The notes under the pieces: generated by a model | What the model was told of the DNA's origin: nothing | The model's input: the letters and a program-made list of their open reading frames with translations, nothing else | Database searches by the model: none | From: Gemmatimonadaceae bacterium | Lineage (GTDB): Bacteria; Gemmatimonadota; Gemmatimonadetes; Gemmatimonadales; Gemmatimonadaceae | Direction of reading: 5' to 3' | Assembly: GCA_020846935.1 (NCBI GenBank) | Contig: JADLCY010000011.1 | Coordinates: 434,001-498,000 of the forward strand | DNA length: 64,000 nucleotides | Program-made: the position numbers and the translations under genes | Shown: piece after piece, positions 31,742 through 64,000 of the stretch | How the letters are laid out: each line of letters begins with the position of its first letter | How positions within the stretch are numbered: the stretch's first letter is position 1

Positions 31742-32163
31742 CGAATGATCGGGGGGGGACGTGGGGGCATCGACGAGTGACGGGGGAACGCATCGTCGGG
31801 CGAATCGGCTGACGAGTCGGCGGGTTGAACGGGGTGAATGGGTCGGCTGGTGAATGGGTCGGCTGGTGAATGGGTCGGCTGGTGAATGGGTCGACGGGTG
31901 AATGGGTTTGACGGTACACGTATCGACGGAATCTCCCACGCGACGGGTCGCCGACACGAGTCGACGGATGGCTCGTGGACGGATCGACGGTGCATGAATT
32001 GCCTGAGGCGGGCGATCGCCCGTGGATGAGCCGGAGAGACCAGACAACGGATCGACGGTAACCTGCGGCGAGTGGTGGACGGCGGGCGTGTGATGGAGTA
32101 CCTAGGGCTGAGCCGTCCGCGGGCCGATGCCGGCGGCCGGGCGCACGTTCTTCCATCCGCGCC
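31742..32163. other. Repeat-rich intergenic region between gyrB and the antiporter
   Basis: 422 bases without a convincing gene. It contains the 16-bp tandem repeat at 31834-31914 and, further on, scattered shorter relatives of the words GTCGACGG and GGATCGACGG. No hairpin with a T-run is visible. Any promoter of the downstream antiporter should be near its right end, but I cannot point to one. Confidence 0.6.
31834..31914. repeat. Five tandem copies of a 16-bp unit
   Basis: The unit GTGAATGGGTCGGCTG occurs three times perfectly (31834, 31850, 31866), then as GTGAATGGGTCGACGG (31882) and as a final diverged GTGAATGGGTTTGACGG. The block follows the gyrB stop by about 90 bases. Confidence 0.9.
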
Positions 32164-34281
32164 ATGCACGACGGACCGAACTTTCTCCAGAACCTCGCGC
32201 TCGTTCTCTGCGTCGCCGCCGTCACGACGGTCGTTTCGCGTCGGGTGCGGCTGCCGGTCGTCTTCGGGTACCTCGTCGCGGGGATGATCGTGGGGCCGTT
32301 TACGCCCCTGCCCCTCTTTGCCGACGCGGAGATGGTGCGCGCGCTCTCCGAGCTTGGCGTCGTCCTCCTCATGTACTCCCTCGGGCTGGAGTTCCGACTC
32401 GGCCGCGTACTGCAGATCGGCGCCACGGCAGGGGTGGCTGCGCTCGCCGAAACGAGCCTGATGTTCGGTCTCGGGTACGCGATCGCGGCGCTCTTCGGGT
32501 GGTCAGATGTCGAACGGCTCTTCACGGGCGCAATCGTCGCGATCTCGTCCACCACGATCATCGCACGCACGTTCACCGAGCAGGGCGTGAAGGGCCGGCT
32601 CAGGGAAACGGTCTTCGGCATCCTCATCGTCGAGGACCTCATTGCGATCCTGCTCATCGCGGTCCTCTCCACGATCGTGACCGGGGGCGGAGTCTCCGGG
32701 CGCGGGCTCGCGCTCACCGGGATTCGCCTGGCGACGTTCCTCGTCGCCCTGATCGCGATCGGACGGGTCGCGCTGCCATGGCTCGTGCGACGCGTGGTTG
32801 CGCTCGGCAGCGATGAAACGACGGTCGTGCTCTCGGTTGGCCTTTCGTTCGCGGCCGCGCTGCTCGCCCTCGCGTTTGGCTACAGCGTCGCGCTCGGCGC
32901 ATTCATCGTCGGGTCACTCGTGGCCGAGAGCGGCGAGGGCGAGCGTATCGCACACCTGATCGCGCCGGTACGCGACATCTTCGTCGCGATCTTCTTCGTT
33001 TCGGTGGGCATGCTCATCGAGCCGCGTGTGGTCGCCGAACACTGGGCCGCGATCCTGGGGCTGAGCGTCGTGGTGATCGTCGGCAAGTTCGTGGCGGTCT
33101 CCATTGGCGCGTTCCTCACCGGGAACGGCCTCAGGCTCTCGGTGCAGGCGGGGATGAGCCTCGCGCAGATCGGCGAGTTCTCGTTCATCATCGCCGGTGT
33201 CGCGCTCGCAGGCGGCGCCACGCGGCCGTTCCTCTACCCCGTAGCGATCGCGGTGTCGGCGCTCACGACCCTGACCACGCCGCTCCTGGTCAAGCGCGGG
33301 CCGCACTTCGCGCAACGCGTGGACCGCAGCCTCCCGGAGGCCCTGCAGACGTTTGTCTCACTCTATGCCACCTGGTTCGACGGGCTGCGGCGCAGTCGAC
33401 CCGCTGCTCGACCGGGCCTGCGACGCGCCGCGTGGCTCATCCTCGGCGACGTCGCGCTGCTCGGGGGACTCATGATCGCGGCCGCGGCGGAGATGAATCG
33501 ACTGGCGCCACTCATCGAGGGCTGGTTCTCGTGGCAGGCGCCTGCGGGGCGCTATGCGGTGCTCGTGCTCGCGCTCGGCGCGGCCACGCCGTTCGTGGCG
33601 GGACTGGTGCGCATGACGCGCTTCGTCGCAACCGAACTGGCGCTGCGCGCGATGCCCGGCCCCGAGCGCCATCGCCTCGACCGCGCGGCGGCGCCGCGGA
33701 TCGCGTTCGTCGCGACGCTGCAATACGGGCTCCTGCTCGCGTGCGCGATTCCGCTCCTCGCCCTGCTGCAGCCAATGGCACCGAGGCTACCGGTGGCCGG
33801 CGCCTTTGGACTGATGGCGATCGGTGCTGCCGTTGCAGTGTGGCGAAGCGCGACTGCGCTCTACGGACATGCGCGCGCCGGCGCCGAAGTGATCGTAATG
33901 GCCCTGATGCAGAAGAGCACCAGCAACTCTACCGAGGAAGAGCTGGCTGTCACGATGGATCACGTGGCAGCCATGCTGCCCGGGCTCGGCGATCCGGAAT
34001 CCGTGAGACTCGTGGCGGGCGATCCCGGGGTCGGGCGCAGCCTGGGTGAGCTCGACCTGCGAGGGGAGACCGGGGCGACGGTGTTGGCCATCCTGCGTCG
34101 CTCGGCGGACGGCGCTGAGTCCATCACACCGCGGGGCAGCGAGCGCTTGCGCGAAGGCGATGTCCTCGCGCTCGCCGGCACGGAGGACGCCATCGTGCTG
34201 GCTCGTCAGGCGTTGGTGCGTCGAGGGCAGCCCCAGGGTGATCCAGACGCGGCGTCTGCCGGCGGCGCCGGCGCTCTCTGA
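32164..34281 (+). CDS. CPA2-family monovalent cation:H+ antiporter with C-terminal RCK_C domain
   Basis: 705 residues. The first 390 form the 12-13-helix Na+/H+ exchanger fold (FGYLVAGMIVGPF, LGVVLLMYSLGLEF, VAISSTTIIARTF, ALGAFIVGSLVAES). Residues about 420-570 contain three or four further helices, more than KefB/KefC have. The C-terminal 85 residues (VRLVAGDPGVGRSLGELDLRG) form an RCK_C/TrkA-C ligand-binding domain. There is no RCK_N nucleotide domain, so control by glutathione or NAD as in KefC is unlikely. Confidence 0.92.
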   Translation: MHDGPNFLQNLALVLCVAAVTTVVSRRVRLPVVFGYLVAGMIVGPFTPLPLFADAEMVRALSELGVVLLMYSLGLEFRLGRVLQIGATAGVAALAETSLMFGLGYAIAALFGWSDVERLFTGAIVAISSTTIIARTFTEQGVKGRLRETVFGILIVEDLIAILLIAVLSTIVTGGGVSGRGLALTGIRLATFLVALIAIGRVALPWLVRRVVALGSDETTVVLSVGLSFAAALLALAFGYSVALGAFIVGSLVAESGEGERIAHLIAPVRDIFVAIFFVSVGMLIEPRVVAEHWAAILGLSVVVIVGKFVAVSIGAFLTGNGLRLSVQAGMSLAQIGEFSFIIAGVALAGGATRPFLYPVAIAVSALTTLTTPLLVKRGPHFAQRVDRSLPEALQTFVSLYATWFDGLRRSRPAARPGLRRAAWLILGDVALLGGLMIAAAAEMNRLAPLIEGWFSWQAPAGRYAVLVLALGAATPFVAGLVRMTRFVATELALRAMPGPERHRLDRAAAPRIAFVATLQYGLLLACAIPLLALLQPMAPRLPVAGAFGLMAIGAAVAVWRSATALYGHARAGAEVIVMALMQKSTSNSTEEELAVTMDHVAAMLPGLGDPESVRLVAGDPGVGRSLGELDLRGETGATVLAILRRSADGAESITPRGSERLREGDVLALAGTEDAIVLARQALVRRGQPQGDPDAASAGGAGAL

Positions 34282-34336
34282 GGCTCATCCAGGATCCTGG
34301 CGCGACTGCCAGTGTCGCCGGCCCGCGGGTGGACGA

Positions 34337-34657
34337 GCCTCTCCCGCGCTTGCTCCTTGCGCGCGCGAGCCAACGCCGCGCAAAGGCATCTTGCGCTCCG
34401 ATCAACGTCGAGTCGATGACGCCGACCGCGATCAGCGACCAGCTTATCCCTCCTTCTGCTCCTTCACACAGGCGAGGAGCTGCCGAGCCAAGGCGTCGTG
34501 CACGCCGATCAGCGCCGAGATGATGACGCCGACCGCGAGCAGCGACGAGCTTATTTCCCCTTCTGCTCCTTCACGTAGGTCAGGAGCTGTCGCGCAAAGG
34601 CGTAGTGCACACCGATCAGCGCCGCGACGATGACGCCGATGGCGAGGCGGGAGATGA
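34337..34657 (-). repeat. Three tandem 107-bp copies of the 3' end of a small membrane-protein gene
   Basis: Copy 1 (34551-34657) is the last part of the gene at 34551-34802. Copy 2 (34444-34550) encodes the same C-terminus with substitutions (ALIGVHDALARQLLACVKEQ versus ALIGVHYAFARQLLTYVKEQ) and keeps a TAA stop. Copy 3 (34337-34443) is further decayed. Anchor words GATGAC at 34415, 34522 and 34629 give an exact 107-base period; 107 is not a multiple of three, so read-through changes frame. Confidence 0.88.
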
Positions 34658-34802
34658 GGGAGTGTTCGGCATCGAGTCCGCCGGTGGGCGACTGTGCGGT
34701 GATCCAATAGAAGAGGGCAAAGATCCCGACCGCTCCCACACAGACGCCGAGCGCGCCAAAGGCGGCCAGGTGACCGTGGGTCTTCATGGTTGGTGTCTGC
34801 AT
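34551..34802 (-). CDS. Small membrane protein with two transmembrane helices
   Basis: Up to 83 residues (ATG at 34802, or 78 from the ATG at 34787; neither has a clear ribosome-binding site). Two hydrophobic segments (AAFGALGVCVGAVGIFALFYW and LAIGVIVAALIGVHYAF) are followed by a basic tail, RQLLTYVKEQKGK. No family is recognised. It is convergent with the upstream antiporter and divergent from the BNR gene. Its 3' end has been tandemly copied downstream. Confidence 0.6.
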   Translation of the reverse strand: MQTPTMKTHGHLAAFGALGVCVGAVGIFALFYWITAQSPTGGLDAEHSLISRLAIGVIVAALIGVHYAFARQLLTYVKEQKGK

Positions 34803-34925
34803 GCGCCAGTGATCTGAGGAGCTGCAAGATCGACGCGGCGCACGCGGGAGGCAACCGCCGCCTCCCCAAGGGAGGGCGCAGGAGGTAGCATTTCTCGCGT
34901 TCCGTCATCCAGGCAAGGAGCCTTC

Positions 34926-37900
34926 ATGCGTACGTCTGGTTCGCCCCGGCAGGTCCTGTCCATCCTCCTCTTTCTCGCCGGCACCGCAGTCAGCGCGCAG
35001 CCCGCGCGTCGTCCGGCGACCGCTGCCGCCCCCAGTCCGGCGGCGCCCACCGTGGCCGAGTCGTTGTTCGCGGGGCTGTCTTACCGCAACATCGGACCGT
35101 CGAACATGTCCGGGCGCATGAGCGACGTGGAGGGCGTGGCCGGCGACCCGTCGATCGTGTACGTCGGGAGCGCGTCCGGAGGCGTCTGGAAGTCGACGAA
35201 CGCCGGCACGACCTGGACGCCGATCTTCGACAAGCAGTCCGTGGCGTCGATCGGCGACCTGGCGCTCGACCCGACCAATCCCGAGGTCGTTTACGTCGGC
35301 ACCGGCGAGGCCAACGTGCGGAACTCGGTGAGCTTTGGCAACGGCGTGTACAAGACCACGGATGGTGGCAAGACGTGGCGGCACCTCGGCCTCGCCGATA
35401 CGCGGCATATCTCGCGCATCGTGGTGAACCCGCGCGATCCGCGAAAGGTCTACGTCGCCGCCGTTGGCCACGCCTTTGGGCCGAACGAGGAGCGGGGCGT
35501 GTTCATGTCGGAAGACGGTGGTGAGCACTGGACGAAGGTGCTGTACACCGACGCCGTGCACGGCGCGGCGGACCTCGACATCGACCCGGTGAATCCCAAT
35601 CGGCTGTATGCGGCCCTGTGGTACTTCGACCGCAAGCAGTGGACGTTCCGCTCGGGCGACGAGCAAGGTGGCATCTACCGCTCGGTCGACGGCGGGAAGA
35701 CCTGGACGAAGGCGACGAAGGGTCTGCCGAAGCTCATGGGGCGCGTCGGGATCAAGGTGGCGCCCTCGTCTCCCAACGTGGTGTACGCGGTCGCCGAGAC
35801 CCGCGAGGGCTACGTCTTCAGGTCCACGGACCATGGCGAGACGTGGGTGAAGACCAGCGACAACGCGCACACGCTCGGCCGGGGTTTCTATTACGCCGAC
35901 CTCCGGGTGGACCCGACCAACGCCGATCGCCTCTACACGTTAGGCATGGCGTTCTCGTTTTCGGTGGATGGCGGCAGCACGTTCCGCCCGATGACGGGGA
36001 ATTTTCACGGCGACCACCAGACGATGTGGATCGACCCCATGAACCCGCGGCGCATGTTCATGGGTGATGACGGCGGGATGAACGTCTCGTACGACCAGGG
36101 CCGGCAGTGGGAGTGGTATCCGAACCTCCCGGTGGGACAGTTCTACCAGGTGTCCTACGACATGCGCGAGCCGTTCTACCACCTCGCCGGCGGGCTGCAG
36201 GACAACGGCGTGTGGACCGGCCCGTCGCGCGTGCGCGGGGCGTCGATCCTCATCGACGACTGGCGCTTCATCCAGAATGGCGACGGCTACTACGCCGTCT
36301 CGCATCCCGACAACCCGGACCTGTTCCTCTCCGACTACCAGGCCGGCGGCATCCAGGCGACCAACCTCCAGACCTACGAGCAGCGCGAGGCCAGCCCGCA
36401 GATCAAGCGCATGGACGGCTACCCGGCGGATAGCAACCAGGTGCGCTTCAACTGGAACGCGCCGATCGTGAAGTCGCCACACGACGGCAAGATCGTGTAT
36501 TTCGCCGGCAACATCGTGTACAAGTCGTCGGACTGGGGCCGCACGTGGACGGCGATCTCGCCCGACCTCTCGAAGAACGATCGATCCCGACAGGGGGATG
36601 CCGGCGGCCCGGTCCTCAAGGAGAACACGGTCGCCGAGTACTACGGCAACGTGTTCTCGTTCGCCGAATCGCCGGTGCAGGCCGGCGTGCTCTGGGCAGG
36701 AACGGACGATGGCAACCTGCAGGTCTCGCGCGACGCGGGTCGGACGTGGTCCAACGTGGCAGCCAACGTACCGGGCGTCGGCCCGGACGCGGTGGTCTCC
36801 GGCGTGGAGCCGTCTCGCACAGCGGCCGGCACCGCGTACGCCACGTTCGAGCGGCGAATGATGGACGACTTCCGCCCCTACGTGTACAAGACGACCGACT
36901 TCGGGCGGACGTGGACGAACATCACGGGGAACCTGCCCGCAGACAACTACGTGCAGGTGATCCGCGAGGACCCGAAGAACGCGAGCCTGCTCTATGTCGG
37001 CACGGAACTGGGGCTCTACGCGTCATGGAGCGGCGGCTCCGACTGGACGCGGCTGCACCTCGGCAACCTCCCGCCGGTCGCGGTGCATGAAGTGCTCGTG
37101 CATCCGCGCGACAATGACCTCGTGCTCGCCACGCACGGACGCGCCCTCTGGGTGTTCGACGATGCCTCGGCGATCCAGCAGATGACGCCCGCCATCGCAC
37201 GCAAGGCGGCGCACCTGTTCACTCCGCGGGTAGCCACGCGCTTCAACCAGGGTGACCAGAAGTGGAACTGGGGGAACAAGCAGTTCCGCGGCGCCAACAC
37301 GCCATACGGCGCGCTGGTGACCTACTGGCTGGGCGCAAAGCCGGCGGACTCCGCGCTTCGCATCGAGGTGCTGCAGGAGGGCCGTGTGATCCGCACGCTG
37401 CGGCGACCGACGACCAACCAGGGGTTCAACCGCGTTGCGTGGGATCTGCGCATGGACGCGCCCAAGGTGCTGAGCGACATGCCCGCCGACTCGTCGGACC
37501 CCGGCGACTGGCGCGGGCGCCCGGTGGGCCCGCAGGTGCTGCCAGGTCAATACGCCATCCGGCTGACCGTGGGCGGCGATGTGCAGGAGCAGCCCCTGAC
37601 CGTACGCATCGACCCCACGTCGCAAACCACGCTGGCCGAGCTGCAGCAGCAGTTCGAGCAGGCCACGCGACTGAACGCGGTGATCGCGAACATCATTGAC
37701 GCCGAGCGCAACCTCGTGGCCTTCAAGGGCCAGGTGGACGAGCGCCGAACGACGGGCCGCGAGATGCGCGGTGACGCAGCGCGCGAGATGTCGGCAGCGG
37801 CGGGCGAGGAGATCGGGAAGCTGGACTCGGTGCGCTTGCAGCTGACGCGTCCGCGCCCGGATGCGGTGCCGTTCTACTCGGAGGGCCCGCGTCCGCTCGA

Positions 37901-38117
37901 GCGCGCGATGAGCCTGATGGGTGCGATCGACAACGGTCTGTCACCGATCATTGACGGACAACGCGAGTACATGGGCGATGTTCGGCGCGACGTACTGACC
38001 GTGATCGACATGGCTGAGCGCCAGGTCGACGCTACCGCACGCCGCATGAATCCGCTGCTGCAGGCGCTTGGTCTCCCGGCGCTCGTGATTCCTCCTCGCA
38101 AGCAGGCCGCCATGTAG
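34926..38117 (+). CDS. Secreted BNR/sortilin-type beta-propeller protein
   Basis: 1063 residues with a signal peptide cut after AVSA (ahead of AQPARR). At least eight Asp-box/BNR motifs of the form S-x-D-x-G-x-T-W (STNAGTTW, TTDGGKTW, SEDGGEHW, SVDGGKTW, STDHGETW, SSDWGRTW, SRDAGRTW, TTDFGRTW) describe two VPS10/exo-sialidase-like propellers spanning about 50-760. After that come an Ig-like strand region (about 800-900) and a helical C-terminus (about 915-1063). Such proteins are annotated as glycosyl hydrolases, but no catalytic set is obvious. A clean AAGGAG site precedes the ATG. A Leu-TTA in CGTTAGGC is at 35938. Confidence 0.88.
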   Translation: MRTSGSPRQVLSILLFLAGTAVSAQPARRPATAAAPSPAAPTVAESLFAGLSYRNIGPSNMSGRMSDVEGVAGDPSIVYVGSASGGVWKSTNAGTTWTPIFDKQSVASIGDLALDPTNPEVVYVGTGEANVRNSVSFGNGVYKTTDGGKTWRHLGLADTRHISRIVVNPRDPRKVYVAAVGHAFGPNEERGVFMSEDGGEHWTKVLYTDAVHGAADLDIDPVNPNRLYAALWYFDRKQWTFRSGDEQGGIYRSVDGGKTWTKATKGLPKLMGRVGIKVAPSSPNVVYAVAETREGYVFRSTDHGETWVKTSDNAHTLGRGFYYADLRVDPTNADRLYTLGMAFSFSVDGGSTFRPMTGNFHGDHQTMWIDPMNPRRMFMGDDGGMNVSYDQGRQWEWYPNLPVGQFYQVSYDMREPFYHLAGGLQDNGVWTGPSRVRGASILIDDWRFIQNGDGYYAVSHPDNPDLFLSDYQAGGIQATNLQTYEQREASPQIKRMDGYPADSNQVRFNWNAPIVKSPHDGKIVYFAGNIVYKSSDWGRTWTAISPDLSKNDRSRQGDAGGPVLKENTVAEYYGNVFSFAESPVQAGVLWAGTDDGNLQVSRDAGRTWSNVAANVPGVGPDAVVSGVEPSRTAAGTAYATFERRMMDDFRPYVYKTTDFGRTWTNITGNLPADNYVQVIREDPKNASLLYVGTELGLYASWSGGSDWTRLHLGNLPPVAVHEVLVHPRDNDLVLATHGRALWVFDDASAIQQMTPAIARKAAHLFTPRVATRFNQGDQKWNWGNKQFRGANTPYGALVTYWLGAKPADSALRIEVLQEGRVIRTLRRPTTNQGFNRVAWDLRMDAPKVLSDMPADSSDPGDWRGRPVGPQVLPGQYAIRLTVGGDVQEQPLTVRIDPTSQTTLAELQQQFEQATRLNAVIANIIDAERNLVAFKGQVDERRTTGREMRGDAAREMSAAAGEEIGKLDSVRLQLTRPRPDAVPFYSEGPRPLERAMSLMGAIDNGLSPIIDGQREYMGDVRRDVLTVIDMAERQVDATARRMNPLLQALGLPALVIPPRKQAAM

Positions 38118-56159: not shown

Positions 56160-56413
56160 GCATCGGGCGTGTCACGCTCGTCGGGTGTGGCGCGCGCGTC
56201 AGGCGTCGCGCGCTCGTCAGGTGTGGCGCGCGTCAGGCGTGGCGCGCTCGTCAGGTGTGGCGCACGTCAGGCGTGGCGCTCTCGTCAGGCGTCGCGCGCT
56301 CGTCAGGTGTGGCGCACGTCAGGCGTGGCGCGCTCGTCAGGCGTCGCGCGCTCTTCGGGCGTGGCGCGCTCGCAGGGGGGACGCACTCGTCAGGCGCGGC
56401 GCGCTCGTCAGGC
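56160..56413. repeat. Fifteen-unit tandem array of a 16-18-bp word, ending inside the DUF488 gene
   Basis: The consensus unit is CGTCAGGCGTGGCGCGCT (18 bp), with 16-bp variants CGTCAGGTGTGGCGCA. A larger 52-base cycle (16+18+18) is visible around 56252-56355. Units near the left end are diverged; the right end runs into the stop codon of the DUF488 gene. Confidence 0.92.
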
Positions 56414-56794
56414 GATATCTGCGCCGCGTTCCGTGAGCAAGGCCCGCAGCACCGAGCGGTGGCAGCGACTCTCGTCTTCGCAGTAGCAGCCGATCGACAG
56501 ATTGGTGGTGTGCGAGAGTGCGGCGAGCAGGTCGAGCGCGTGTGCGGCCGGCGCCGCCTTCATCTCGGCGCGAAAATGCGTCACGAACCTGGCCCATTCC
56601 CGCTCGTTGCTCGCGTGCAGTGCGAGCTTCACCAGCTCAGCGCTTGGCGAGAGTTCCGGCAGCCAGGTGTCGTACCAGTTGTCGGCCGCAAAACGCGCCT
56701 TCGGTACACCGCGGGGCGGGCGGCGTACGGTGCCGATGCGCACGCCTTCCCGGGCGTGACGGCTGGTGCCCAACTGCACGATGCGGAGTGACAT
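56408..56794 (-). CDS. DUF488 family protein
   Basis: 128 residues with the DUF488 pattern: VQLGTSR near the start, FAADNWYDTWLPELSPS in the middle, and the Cys-containing LSIGCYCEDESRCHRSVLRALL block near the C-terminus. The function of the family is not established. The TGA stop (56410-56408) is supplied by the last unit of the tandem repeat, so the C-terminus may have been set by the repeat. Confidence 0.85.
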   Translation of the reverse strand: MSLRIVQLGTSRHAREGVRIGTVRRPPRGVPKARFAADNWYDTWLPELSPSAELVKLALHASNEREWARFVTHFRAEMKAAPAAHALDLLAALSHTTNLSIGCYCEDESRCHRSVLRALLTERGADIA

Positions 56795-62814: not shown

Positions 62815-63299
62815 CACCAACCGCGGGACGCAGCTACGAGGACTTCGAAGTGGGCATGGTGATCCGCCACGCCGTGGGACGCACGATCACCGACACGGAC
62901 AACACCTGGTTCACGCTCCTCACCAACAACGGCAACCCGATCCACTTCGACCGGCACTATGCGGCGCAGACGGAGTTCGGCCAACCCCTGGTGAACTCGA
63001 CGCTCACCCTGGCTCTCGTCGTCGGGCTCTCGGTGAGTGACATCTCGCGACACGCCGTGAACCTCGGGTGGACCGACATTGCGTTGCCCAATCCGGTGTT
63101 CGAGGGCGACACGCTCTACGCACAGACCGAAGTCCTGAGCGCCCGGGAGTCCAGGTCGCGGCCGCACATGGGCATCGTCGAAGTCCGTACGACCGGCTAC
63201 AAGCAGGATGGCACGGTGGTGATCACGTACCGGCGGGCGATCCTGGTGTATCGACGCGGCCACGCGCCGGTCGTGCCAACGCCCGTCCCGTCCGAATGA
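62811..63299 (+). CDS. MaoC-like hydratase (mesaconyl/itaconyl-CoA hydratase type)
   Basis: 162 residues. Hot-dog fold with TNNGNPIHFDRHYAAQTEFG, FGQPLVNSTLTLALVVGLSVSD and the RSRPHMGIVEVRTTG segment. The usual catalytic Asp of R-hydratases (GDxNPxH) is replaced by N40, while His45 is kept. The resemblance to mesaconyl- and itaconyl-type hydratases is by eye. It is in overlapping ATGA contact with both neighbours. Confidence 0.88.
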   Translation: MTPTAGRSYEDFEVGMVIRHAVGRTITDTDNTWFTLLTNNGNPIHFDRHYAAQTEFGQPLVNSTLTLALVVGLSVSDISRHAVNLGWTDIALPNPVFEGDTLYAQTEVLSARESRSRPHMGIVEVRTTGYKQDGTVVITYRRAILVYRRGHAPVVPTPVPSE

Positions 63300-64000
63300 A
63301 CGACACCTTGCCCTTCGCGGGCCTGCGCGTGCTTGCGCTCGAGCAGGCCGTGGCGGGTCCGTTCTGCACGCGTCAGTTTGCCGACCTTGGGGCCGATGTC
63401 ATCAAGGTGGAGCACCCCGTCGGGGGCGACGTCGCCCGGCGCTACGACGGCGCGATGCAGGGCCTGTCGGCCTACTTCGCGTGGCTCAACCGCGGCAAGC
63501 GCAGCGTGACCCTGGACCTCAAGGGCACGGATGGCCGGGCCACGATGCTCGCCCTCGTCGACGGGTGCGACGTCTTCGTCCACAACCTCGCGGCTGGCGC
63601 GATCGAGCGCCTCGGGCTCGACTACGATACCGTCGCAGCGCGCAACCCTCGCGCGATCTGGGTCCGCATCTCGGGATACGGCCCCGATGGCCCGTACCGC
63701 GAGCGCAAGGCGTACGACATGCTCATCCAGGCCGAAGCCGGCATCGTATCCGTCACCGGCAGTCCTGACACGCCAGCGAAGGCCGGGGTGAGCATCGCCG
63801 ACATCGGCTCGGGGCACTACGCCTTCTCGAGCGCCACCGCCGCGCTCTACCGCAGGGAACGCACGGGTCGCGGCGCGCGCATCGACATCTCCATGCTGGA
63901 GTGCATGACCGAGTGGATGATGCCACCGCTCTACGTGCACCTGGGCGGCGGCTCGGCACCGCAGCGCACCGGCCTCCGCCACAACATGATCGTGCCCTAC
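63296..64000 (+). CDS. CaiB/BaiF-family CoA-transferase, 3' end outside the window
   Basis: 235 codons are present and the gene runs off the right edge. Class III CoA-transferase motifs are FAGLRVLALEQAVAGPFCTRQFADLGADVIKVE, SAYFAWLNRGKRSVTLDLK, RISGYGPDGPYRERKAYD and VTGSPDTPAKAGVSIADIG. The catalytic Asp is D141 in KAYDML. It starts inside the MaoC stop. Such enzymes activate mesaconate, itaconate, citramalate and similar acids with CoA from succinyl-CoA. Confidence 0.94.
   Translation, partial: MNDTLPFAGLRVLALEQAVAGPFCTRQFADLGADVIKVEHPVGGDVARRYDGAMQGLSAYFAWLNRGKRSVTLDLKGTDGRATMLALVDGCDVFVHNLAAGAIERLGLDYDTVAARNPRAIWVRISGYGPDGPYRERKAYDMLIQAEAGIVSVTGSPDTPAKAGVSIADIGSGHYAFSSATAALYRRERTGRGARIDISMLECMTEWMMPPLYVHLGGGSAPQRTGLRHNMIVPY

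What the first reader, a model, noticed from the sequence alone, without database searches (positions are those of the whole stretch)
34337..34657. Tandem 107-bp triplication of a gene's 3' end, decaying outward
The C-terminal part of a small membrane-protein gene is repeated twice downstream with an exact 107-base period. Copy 2 still encodes a near-identical tail with its own stop; copy 3 is eroded. Since 107 is not a multiple of three, a deletion between copies would swap the C-terminus or shift frame. It looks like a source of replaceable gene tails or slippage-driven duplication caught in progress.
Basis: seen in the sequence. Interest (0 to 1): 0.55.

Follow-up and report, generated by a model that had tools for sequence, protein, structure and literature searches.

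The report
Decaying tandem copies of gene tail
The last third of a small bacterial membrane-protein gene was copied twice in tandem just behind the gene, and the spare copies look like inert leftovers of an ordinary local DNA duplication rather than a working tail-swapping device.

Summary
The repeat is real. On the minus strand an 83-aa, probably two-helix membrane-protein gene (34802-34551) is followed by two more copies of its last ~96 bases at an exact 107-base period. Copies 1-2 match at 84 of 107 positions, 2-3 at 72, 1-3 at 63; elsewhere in the window the best at that lag is 48. Homologues occur in 113 of 179 family genomes. Of 42 loci tested for a tail repeat downstream, only the window is strongly positive; one relative gives a weak 32-base match. 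A same-genus relative with the same convergent neighbour has a 32-bp gap where the window has 269, fitting two inserted units. Copies 1-2 show dN/dS 0.53 without significant coding bias, and copy 2 has no start codon before its codon 12. Best reading: a lineage-specific, inert tandem duplication. Results that do not fit neatly: copy 2 is not evolving detectably faster than the gene and keeps more outgroup states than the gene's own tail.

The parts
34551..34802 (-). gene for an 83-aa small membrane protein, probably two transmembrane helices (no named family)
   Evidence: ORF; no Pfam family at 0.001, nothing above a curated cut-off for this protein in NCBIfam or Pfam; homologues in 113 of 179 family genomes including its own. 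The helices are read by eye.
34551..34657 (-). copy 1 of the 107-base unit: C-terminal coding part and stop codon of the gene (homology starts near 34646)
34444..34550 (-). copy 2: 30-codon tail (21 of 30 residues as in copy 1) with its own TAA; in the -1 frame relative to the gene
   Evidence: 84 of 107 identical to copy 1; codon table
34337..34443 (-). copy 3: first ~60 bases kept, distal third with indels and no stop
   Evidence: 72 of 107 identical to copy 2; distal part weak
34280..34341 (.). stem-loop between the convergent genes, probably the original 3' flank and perhaps a two-way terminator
   Evidence: -35.8 kcal/mol, z -2.26 (minus strand); -32.2 kcal/mol, z -1.54 (plus strand); no terminator with a T run found
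32164..34281 (+). convergent neighbour: cation/proton antiporter with TrkA-C domain
   Evidence: PF00999 1.3e-52, PF02080 2e-11

Best explanation
An ordinary tandem duplication (a minisatellite-like array of 2.5-3 units). In the lineage of this genome, replication slippage or unequal recombination duplicated a 107-base segment made of the last ~96 bases of the small membrane-protein gene plus about 10 bases of its 3' flank, and this happened twice. The two extra units sit between the gene's stop codon and the stem-loop that precedes the convergent antiporter gene. They lie behind the stop, offer no start for a whole tail, and are drifting; the outermost has lost its distal end. Shown: the array, its period, its absence from the tested relatives, and the longer gap. 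Inferred: the molecular route (perhaps helped by the stem that each unit can form), the order of events, and inertness.
For: Array and period. In the own genome the 379-base stretch matches only here and in one 27-base piece at E 7.8e-4 (40 of 106 first-look candidates scored). Of 42 homologous loci with enough downstream DNA, the window scores 112 against a shuffle maximum of 26, and the next best locus (G030) 34. In the same-genus relative G004 with the same convergent antiporter the gap between stops is 32 bp against 269 here: 237 more = 2 x 107 + 23. The stem-loop plus two units fill the window's gap. dN/dS of copies 1-2 is 0.53; nonsynonymous changes are not significantly depleted (10 against null means 12.5, P 0.066, and 11.6, P 0.20), whereas the two gene-to-gene comparisons tested the same way are (P 0.0008 and 0.0004). 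Copy 3 has more changes than copy 2 (15:4, 12:3, 13:3, 12:4 with four outgroups, p 0.012-0.046; over the first 54 sites only 8:2, 4:2, 5:1, 5:1).
Against: Copy 2 is not faster than the gene's own tail (copy-1-unique: copy-2-unique changes 5:6, 7:4, 7:4, 4:7 with four outgroups, p 0.37-0.76), though free decay beside a constrained gene predicts it to be. With the majority of L002-L004 as reference, 10 of the 16 differences fall on copy 1, 4 on copy 2, 2 are ties. Copy 2 against L002 gives the same dN/dS as copy 1 (0.19), and against L003 0.35 (copy 1: 0.40), so copy 2 still looks as gene-like as the gene. Numbers are small and the outgroups distant (synonymous difference 0.47-0.65 to L002 and L003). 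No second genome of the species was available.
Confidence: 0.83

Rival explanations
1. Copies 2 and 3 act as a donor store: in-register recombination or gene conversion now and then replaces the gene's C-terminus with the tail of copy 2.
For: Copy 2 keeps 30 open codons and a stop. It is not faster than the gene's tail and keeps more outgroup states, as occasional conversion could give. An in-register 107-base deletion would give an in-frame chimeric tail (sequence).
Against: No array behind the three same-genus homologues tested, nor a strong one behind any of the 41 other loci. dN/dS 0.53 shows no diversifying selection. Copy 3 has no intact tail, so there is one usable spare only.
Confidence: 0.08
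2. The unit matters as RNA: each copy can form a stem (9-11 uninterrupted pairs) behind the stop codon that shields or ends the two convergent transcripts.
For: The same stem in all three units. The three changes seen in its 9-pair core among the copies all keep pairing (read by eye).
Against: Folding is not exceptional: z -1.33, -1.67 and -0.95 per unit, -1.61 for the whole stretch. No Rfam match at gathering score and no T-run terminator. By eye three of the nine core pairs are broken in L002 and in L003. No strong array in the other 41 loci tested.
Confidence: 0.06
3. A -1 frameshift near the end of the gene fuses the copy 2 tail onto the protein, giving a form of roughly 118 aa with an extra helix.
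For: Copy 2 is open in the -1 frame across the junction; the mechanical ORF 34908-34444 spans it.
Against: No canonical slippery heptamer at the gene's end (read by eye); open frames are frequent in this GC-rich DNA (51 ORFs of 40 aa or more overlap 6 kb); no strong array in the 41 other loci.
Confidence: 0.02

Closest known systems
Bacterial minisatellites / tandem repeats (VNTR loci, as used in MLVA typing; recalled, and named in search listings)
   Same: Head-to-tail copies of a ~100-base unit, diverged, with one damaged edge, seen in one lineage
   Different: Only 2.5-3 old, diverged copies; copy-number variation between strains untested; one unit lies in a gene's 3' end
Partial tandem gene duplication leaving a pseudogene fragment (recalled)
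   Same: Copies of part of a gene directly behind it, without the gene's start and without significant coding bias
   Different: Two successive copies at an exact period; copy 2 still open to its stop and not measurably faster than the gene
Silent-cassette variation (e.g. neisserial pilin genes; recalled, and seen in one search listing and abstract start)
   Same: One complete gene with partial, start-less copies near it
   Different: No variation, conservation, selection for diversity or exchange shown; one usable spare of a short, probably membrane-embedded tail

Membership tests
Tandem repeat (minisatellite) array | Head-to-tail copies of a unit at constant period, beyond chance | tested here: met
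   period 107, score 369; 84/107 and 72/107 identity against a maximum of 48/107 elsewhere in the window
Tandem repeat (minisatellite) array | Copy number varies between strains (VNTR) | not testable with these tools
   one genome per species held; the three same-genus homologues tested have no array
Partial gene duplication (pseudogene fragment) | Copies lack a start and promoter of their own and show no significant coding constraint | tested here: met
   in the copy 2 frame the first ATG/GTG/TTG inside the copy is GTG at codon 12 of 30 (codon table); nonsynonymous depletion P 0.066 and 0.20; the only promoter-like site in 33900-35100 is at 33953-33926, outside the array
Partial gene duplication (pseudogene fragment) | Copies evolve faster than the intact gene | tested here: inconclusive
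   copy 2 not faster than copy 1 (p 0.37-0.76); copy 3 faster than copy 2 (p 0.012-0.046, inflated by its poorly aligned distal part)
Silent-cassette tail-switching system | Array kept in related genomes | tested here: not met
   strong in 1 of 42 loci, the window itself
Silent-cassette tail-switching system | Excess of amino-acid-changing differences between copies | tested here: not met
   dN/dS 0.53 (copies 1-2, 30 codons) and 0.54 (copies 2-3, 18 codons)
Silent-cassette tail-switching system | Exchange between copies seen in populations | not testable with these tools
   single genome of the species

The most novel reading that the evidence does not exclude
The 3' end of this small membrane-protein gene is a recurrent duplication hotspot in its family (a weak ~36-40-base tail repeat also follows it in G030 and perhaps G184), and copy 2 is kept gene-like by occasional conversion, so that the tail is renewed or exchanged from the spare copy.
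Probability: 0.06. Interest if true: 0.35.

Novelty: new member of a known kind. Interest (0 to 1): 0.12.

Why it matters
Mostly as a clear example of how a tandem duplication of a gene's end can persist between convergent genes without harming the gene: because the stop codon lies inside the unit, in-register expansion and contraction leave the protein in frame. If copy 2 really exchanges with the gene it would be a minimal tail-renewal device, but nothing here shows that.

Tried and rejected
A fourth copy further out: ungapped identity 32-35 of 107 with the others, and a local alignment score reached by 433 of 500 shuffles, so rejected. Its only matched stretch, seven bases close to where the next unit would begin, may mark the original 3' flank; this is post hoc.

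Rfam, promoter and terminator scans and folding gave no functional RNA element. A tree of the three tails with four outgroup tails (60 columns) left the order of the copies unresolved. Two sites (codon 7 base 1, codon 23 base 2) are shared by copies 2 and 3 against most outgroups, a weak hint that these two are sisters.

Recurrence in relatives: behind the homologue in G030 the score is 34 (2 of 2000 dinucleotide shuffles), in G184 26 (33 of 2000), in G183 of the same genus 18 (1475 of 2000). Five of the other loci had 1 to 3 of 200 shuffles at or above the score (G184, G067, G149, G020, G025). With 42 tests this is near what chance gives. As control, 3 of 71 other ORFs, picked by a simple length and GC3 rule from the window and four stretches of relatives, also exceed all 100 shuffles. 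So recurrence is not claimed, only kept as the bold reading.

Paper searches: I saw listings and abstract starts only and opened no paper; nothing in those listings concerns this gene or array. One search listed 6 of 18 papers.

Because of the latter I moved 0.02 from the best explanation to the donor-store rival.

Full report
What is there. The window lies in a genome of 4,517,900 bases. On the minus strand, 34802-34551 encodes an 83-aa protein that looks, by eye, like a two-helix membrane protein. It matches no Pfam or NCBIfam family above a cut-off, but homologues occur in 113 of 179 genomes of the taxonomic family, its own included. It stands divergent to a large sortilin/BNR-type gene (34926-38117) and convergent to a cation/proton antiporter gene (32164-34281), with gyrB beyond that.

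The array. Directly after the gene's stop codon the last ~96 bases of the gene recur twice at an exact period of 107. Copies 1-2 agree at 84 of 107, 2-3 at 72, 1-3 at 63; outside 34001-35000 the best 107-base stretch at that lag has 48 matches. Twenty-base blocks at lag 107 jump from 6 of 20 just upstream of 34650 to 15-18 of 20 from there to 34491. The first ~11 bases of units 2 and 3 match each other but not the gene, so they most likely come from the original 3' flank: the duplicated segment was tail, stop and about 10 bases (inference). Copy 3 is kept for about 60 bases and then broken by indels; its stop is gone.

Lineage. In the own genome the stretch matches only itself and one 27-base piece elsewhere (40 of 106 candidates scored). 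I tested the 3' end of each homologue for which a locus was at hand against up to 450 bases downstream of it: 42 of 43 loci had enough sequence. The window scored 112 against a shuffle maximum of 26; the next best (G030) scored 34. Of the 113 genomes with a homologue, 70 had no locus fetched and one (G009) had too little downstream, so 71 are untested at DNA level. Apart from the own genome only G143 and G081 show two protein matches, each pair on separate contigs. G003, a 74%-complete genome of the same genus, showed no protein match. In G004, which keeps the same convergent antiporter, the gap between the two stop codons is 32 bp; in the window it is 269 bp. In G001 gyrB itself is the convergent neighbour, 86 bp away. 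In the window a stem-loop (34280-34341, -35.8 kcal/mol) takes up the antiporter-proximal part of the gap and two units the rest. The single-copy state is therefore most likely ancestral, and the window's lineage gained two units.

Over 30 codons copies 1 and 2 differ at 16 bases (6, 3 and 7 at codon positions 1, 2, 3): 6 synonymous and 10 nonsynonymous by Nei-Gojobori counting, dN/dS 0.53. Random placement of the same changes gives means of 12.5 or 11.6 nonsynonymous (P 0.066 and 0.20). Copies 2-3 over 18 codons give 0.54 (P 0.32). Comparisons of the gene between species give 0.10 to 0.40; the two tested by placement gave P 0.0008 and 0.0004. A ratio near 0.5 is what one constrained and one free copy would give.

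Results against that. Copy 2 is not faster than copy 1 in relative-rate tests (5:6, 7:4, 7:4, 4:7; p 0.37-0.76). Polarised by the majority of L002-L004, 10 of 16 differences fall on copy 1, 4 on copy 2 and 2 are ties. Copy 2 compared with L002 gives the same dN/dS as copy 1 (0.19), and with L003 a slightly lower one (0.35 against 0.40).

Frame. The finding says that a deletion between copies could shift frame because 107 is not a multiple of three. That is not so for in-register events: the codon register and the stop lie inside the unit, so removing one unit joins the front of copy 1 to the back of copy 2 in frame. Only out-of-register deletions shift frame. A whole tail cannot be started inside copy 2: its first possible start there is GTG at codon 12 of 30. 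Otherwise it is reachable from the gene only by a -1 frameshift, for which no canonical slippery site is seen (by eye), or from an out-of-frame start inside or upstream of the gene (mechanical ORF 34908-34444).

Mechanism and verdict. The most likely history is two rounds of local tandem duplication by slippage or unequal recombination, followed by drift, with the outermost unit most damaged. Each unit can fold a stem of 9-11 uninterrupted pairs, which may have favoured slippage, but the folding energies are not exceptional (z -0.95 to -1.67). This is an ordinary minisatellite-like partial gene duplication in a new place, of low general interest.

Noticed in passing
31833-31907: A 16-base tandem repeat (4.7 copies, 96% matches) between gyrB and the antiporter gene; a 26-base piece of it matches only here in the own genome with up to 2 mismatches (4 overlapping places).
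   Followed up: partly
56166-56414: A degenerate 18-base tandem repeat of about 14 copies just behind a 769-aa ORF; overlapping frames read as low-complexity peptides.
   Followed up: no
34551-34802: The small membrane protein belongs to an unnamed family found in 113 of 179 genomes of the taxonomic family; two of 7 members scanned have weak hits to DUF2975 (best E 0.0012).
   Followed up: partly
L045 (G030) and L046 (G184), just behind the homologue's stop codon: A weak repeat of the gene's last ~36-40 bases directly after the stop in two genomes of one genus, not in a third, G183.
   Followed up: partly
63197-63982, minus strand: An ORF whose 3' end resembles its downstream sequence more than 100 shuffles do (score 37 against 32).
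   Followed up: no
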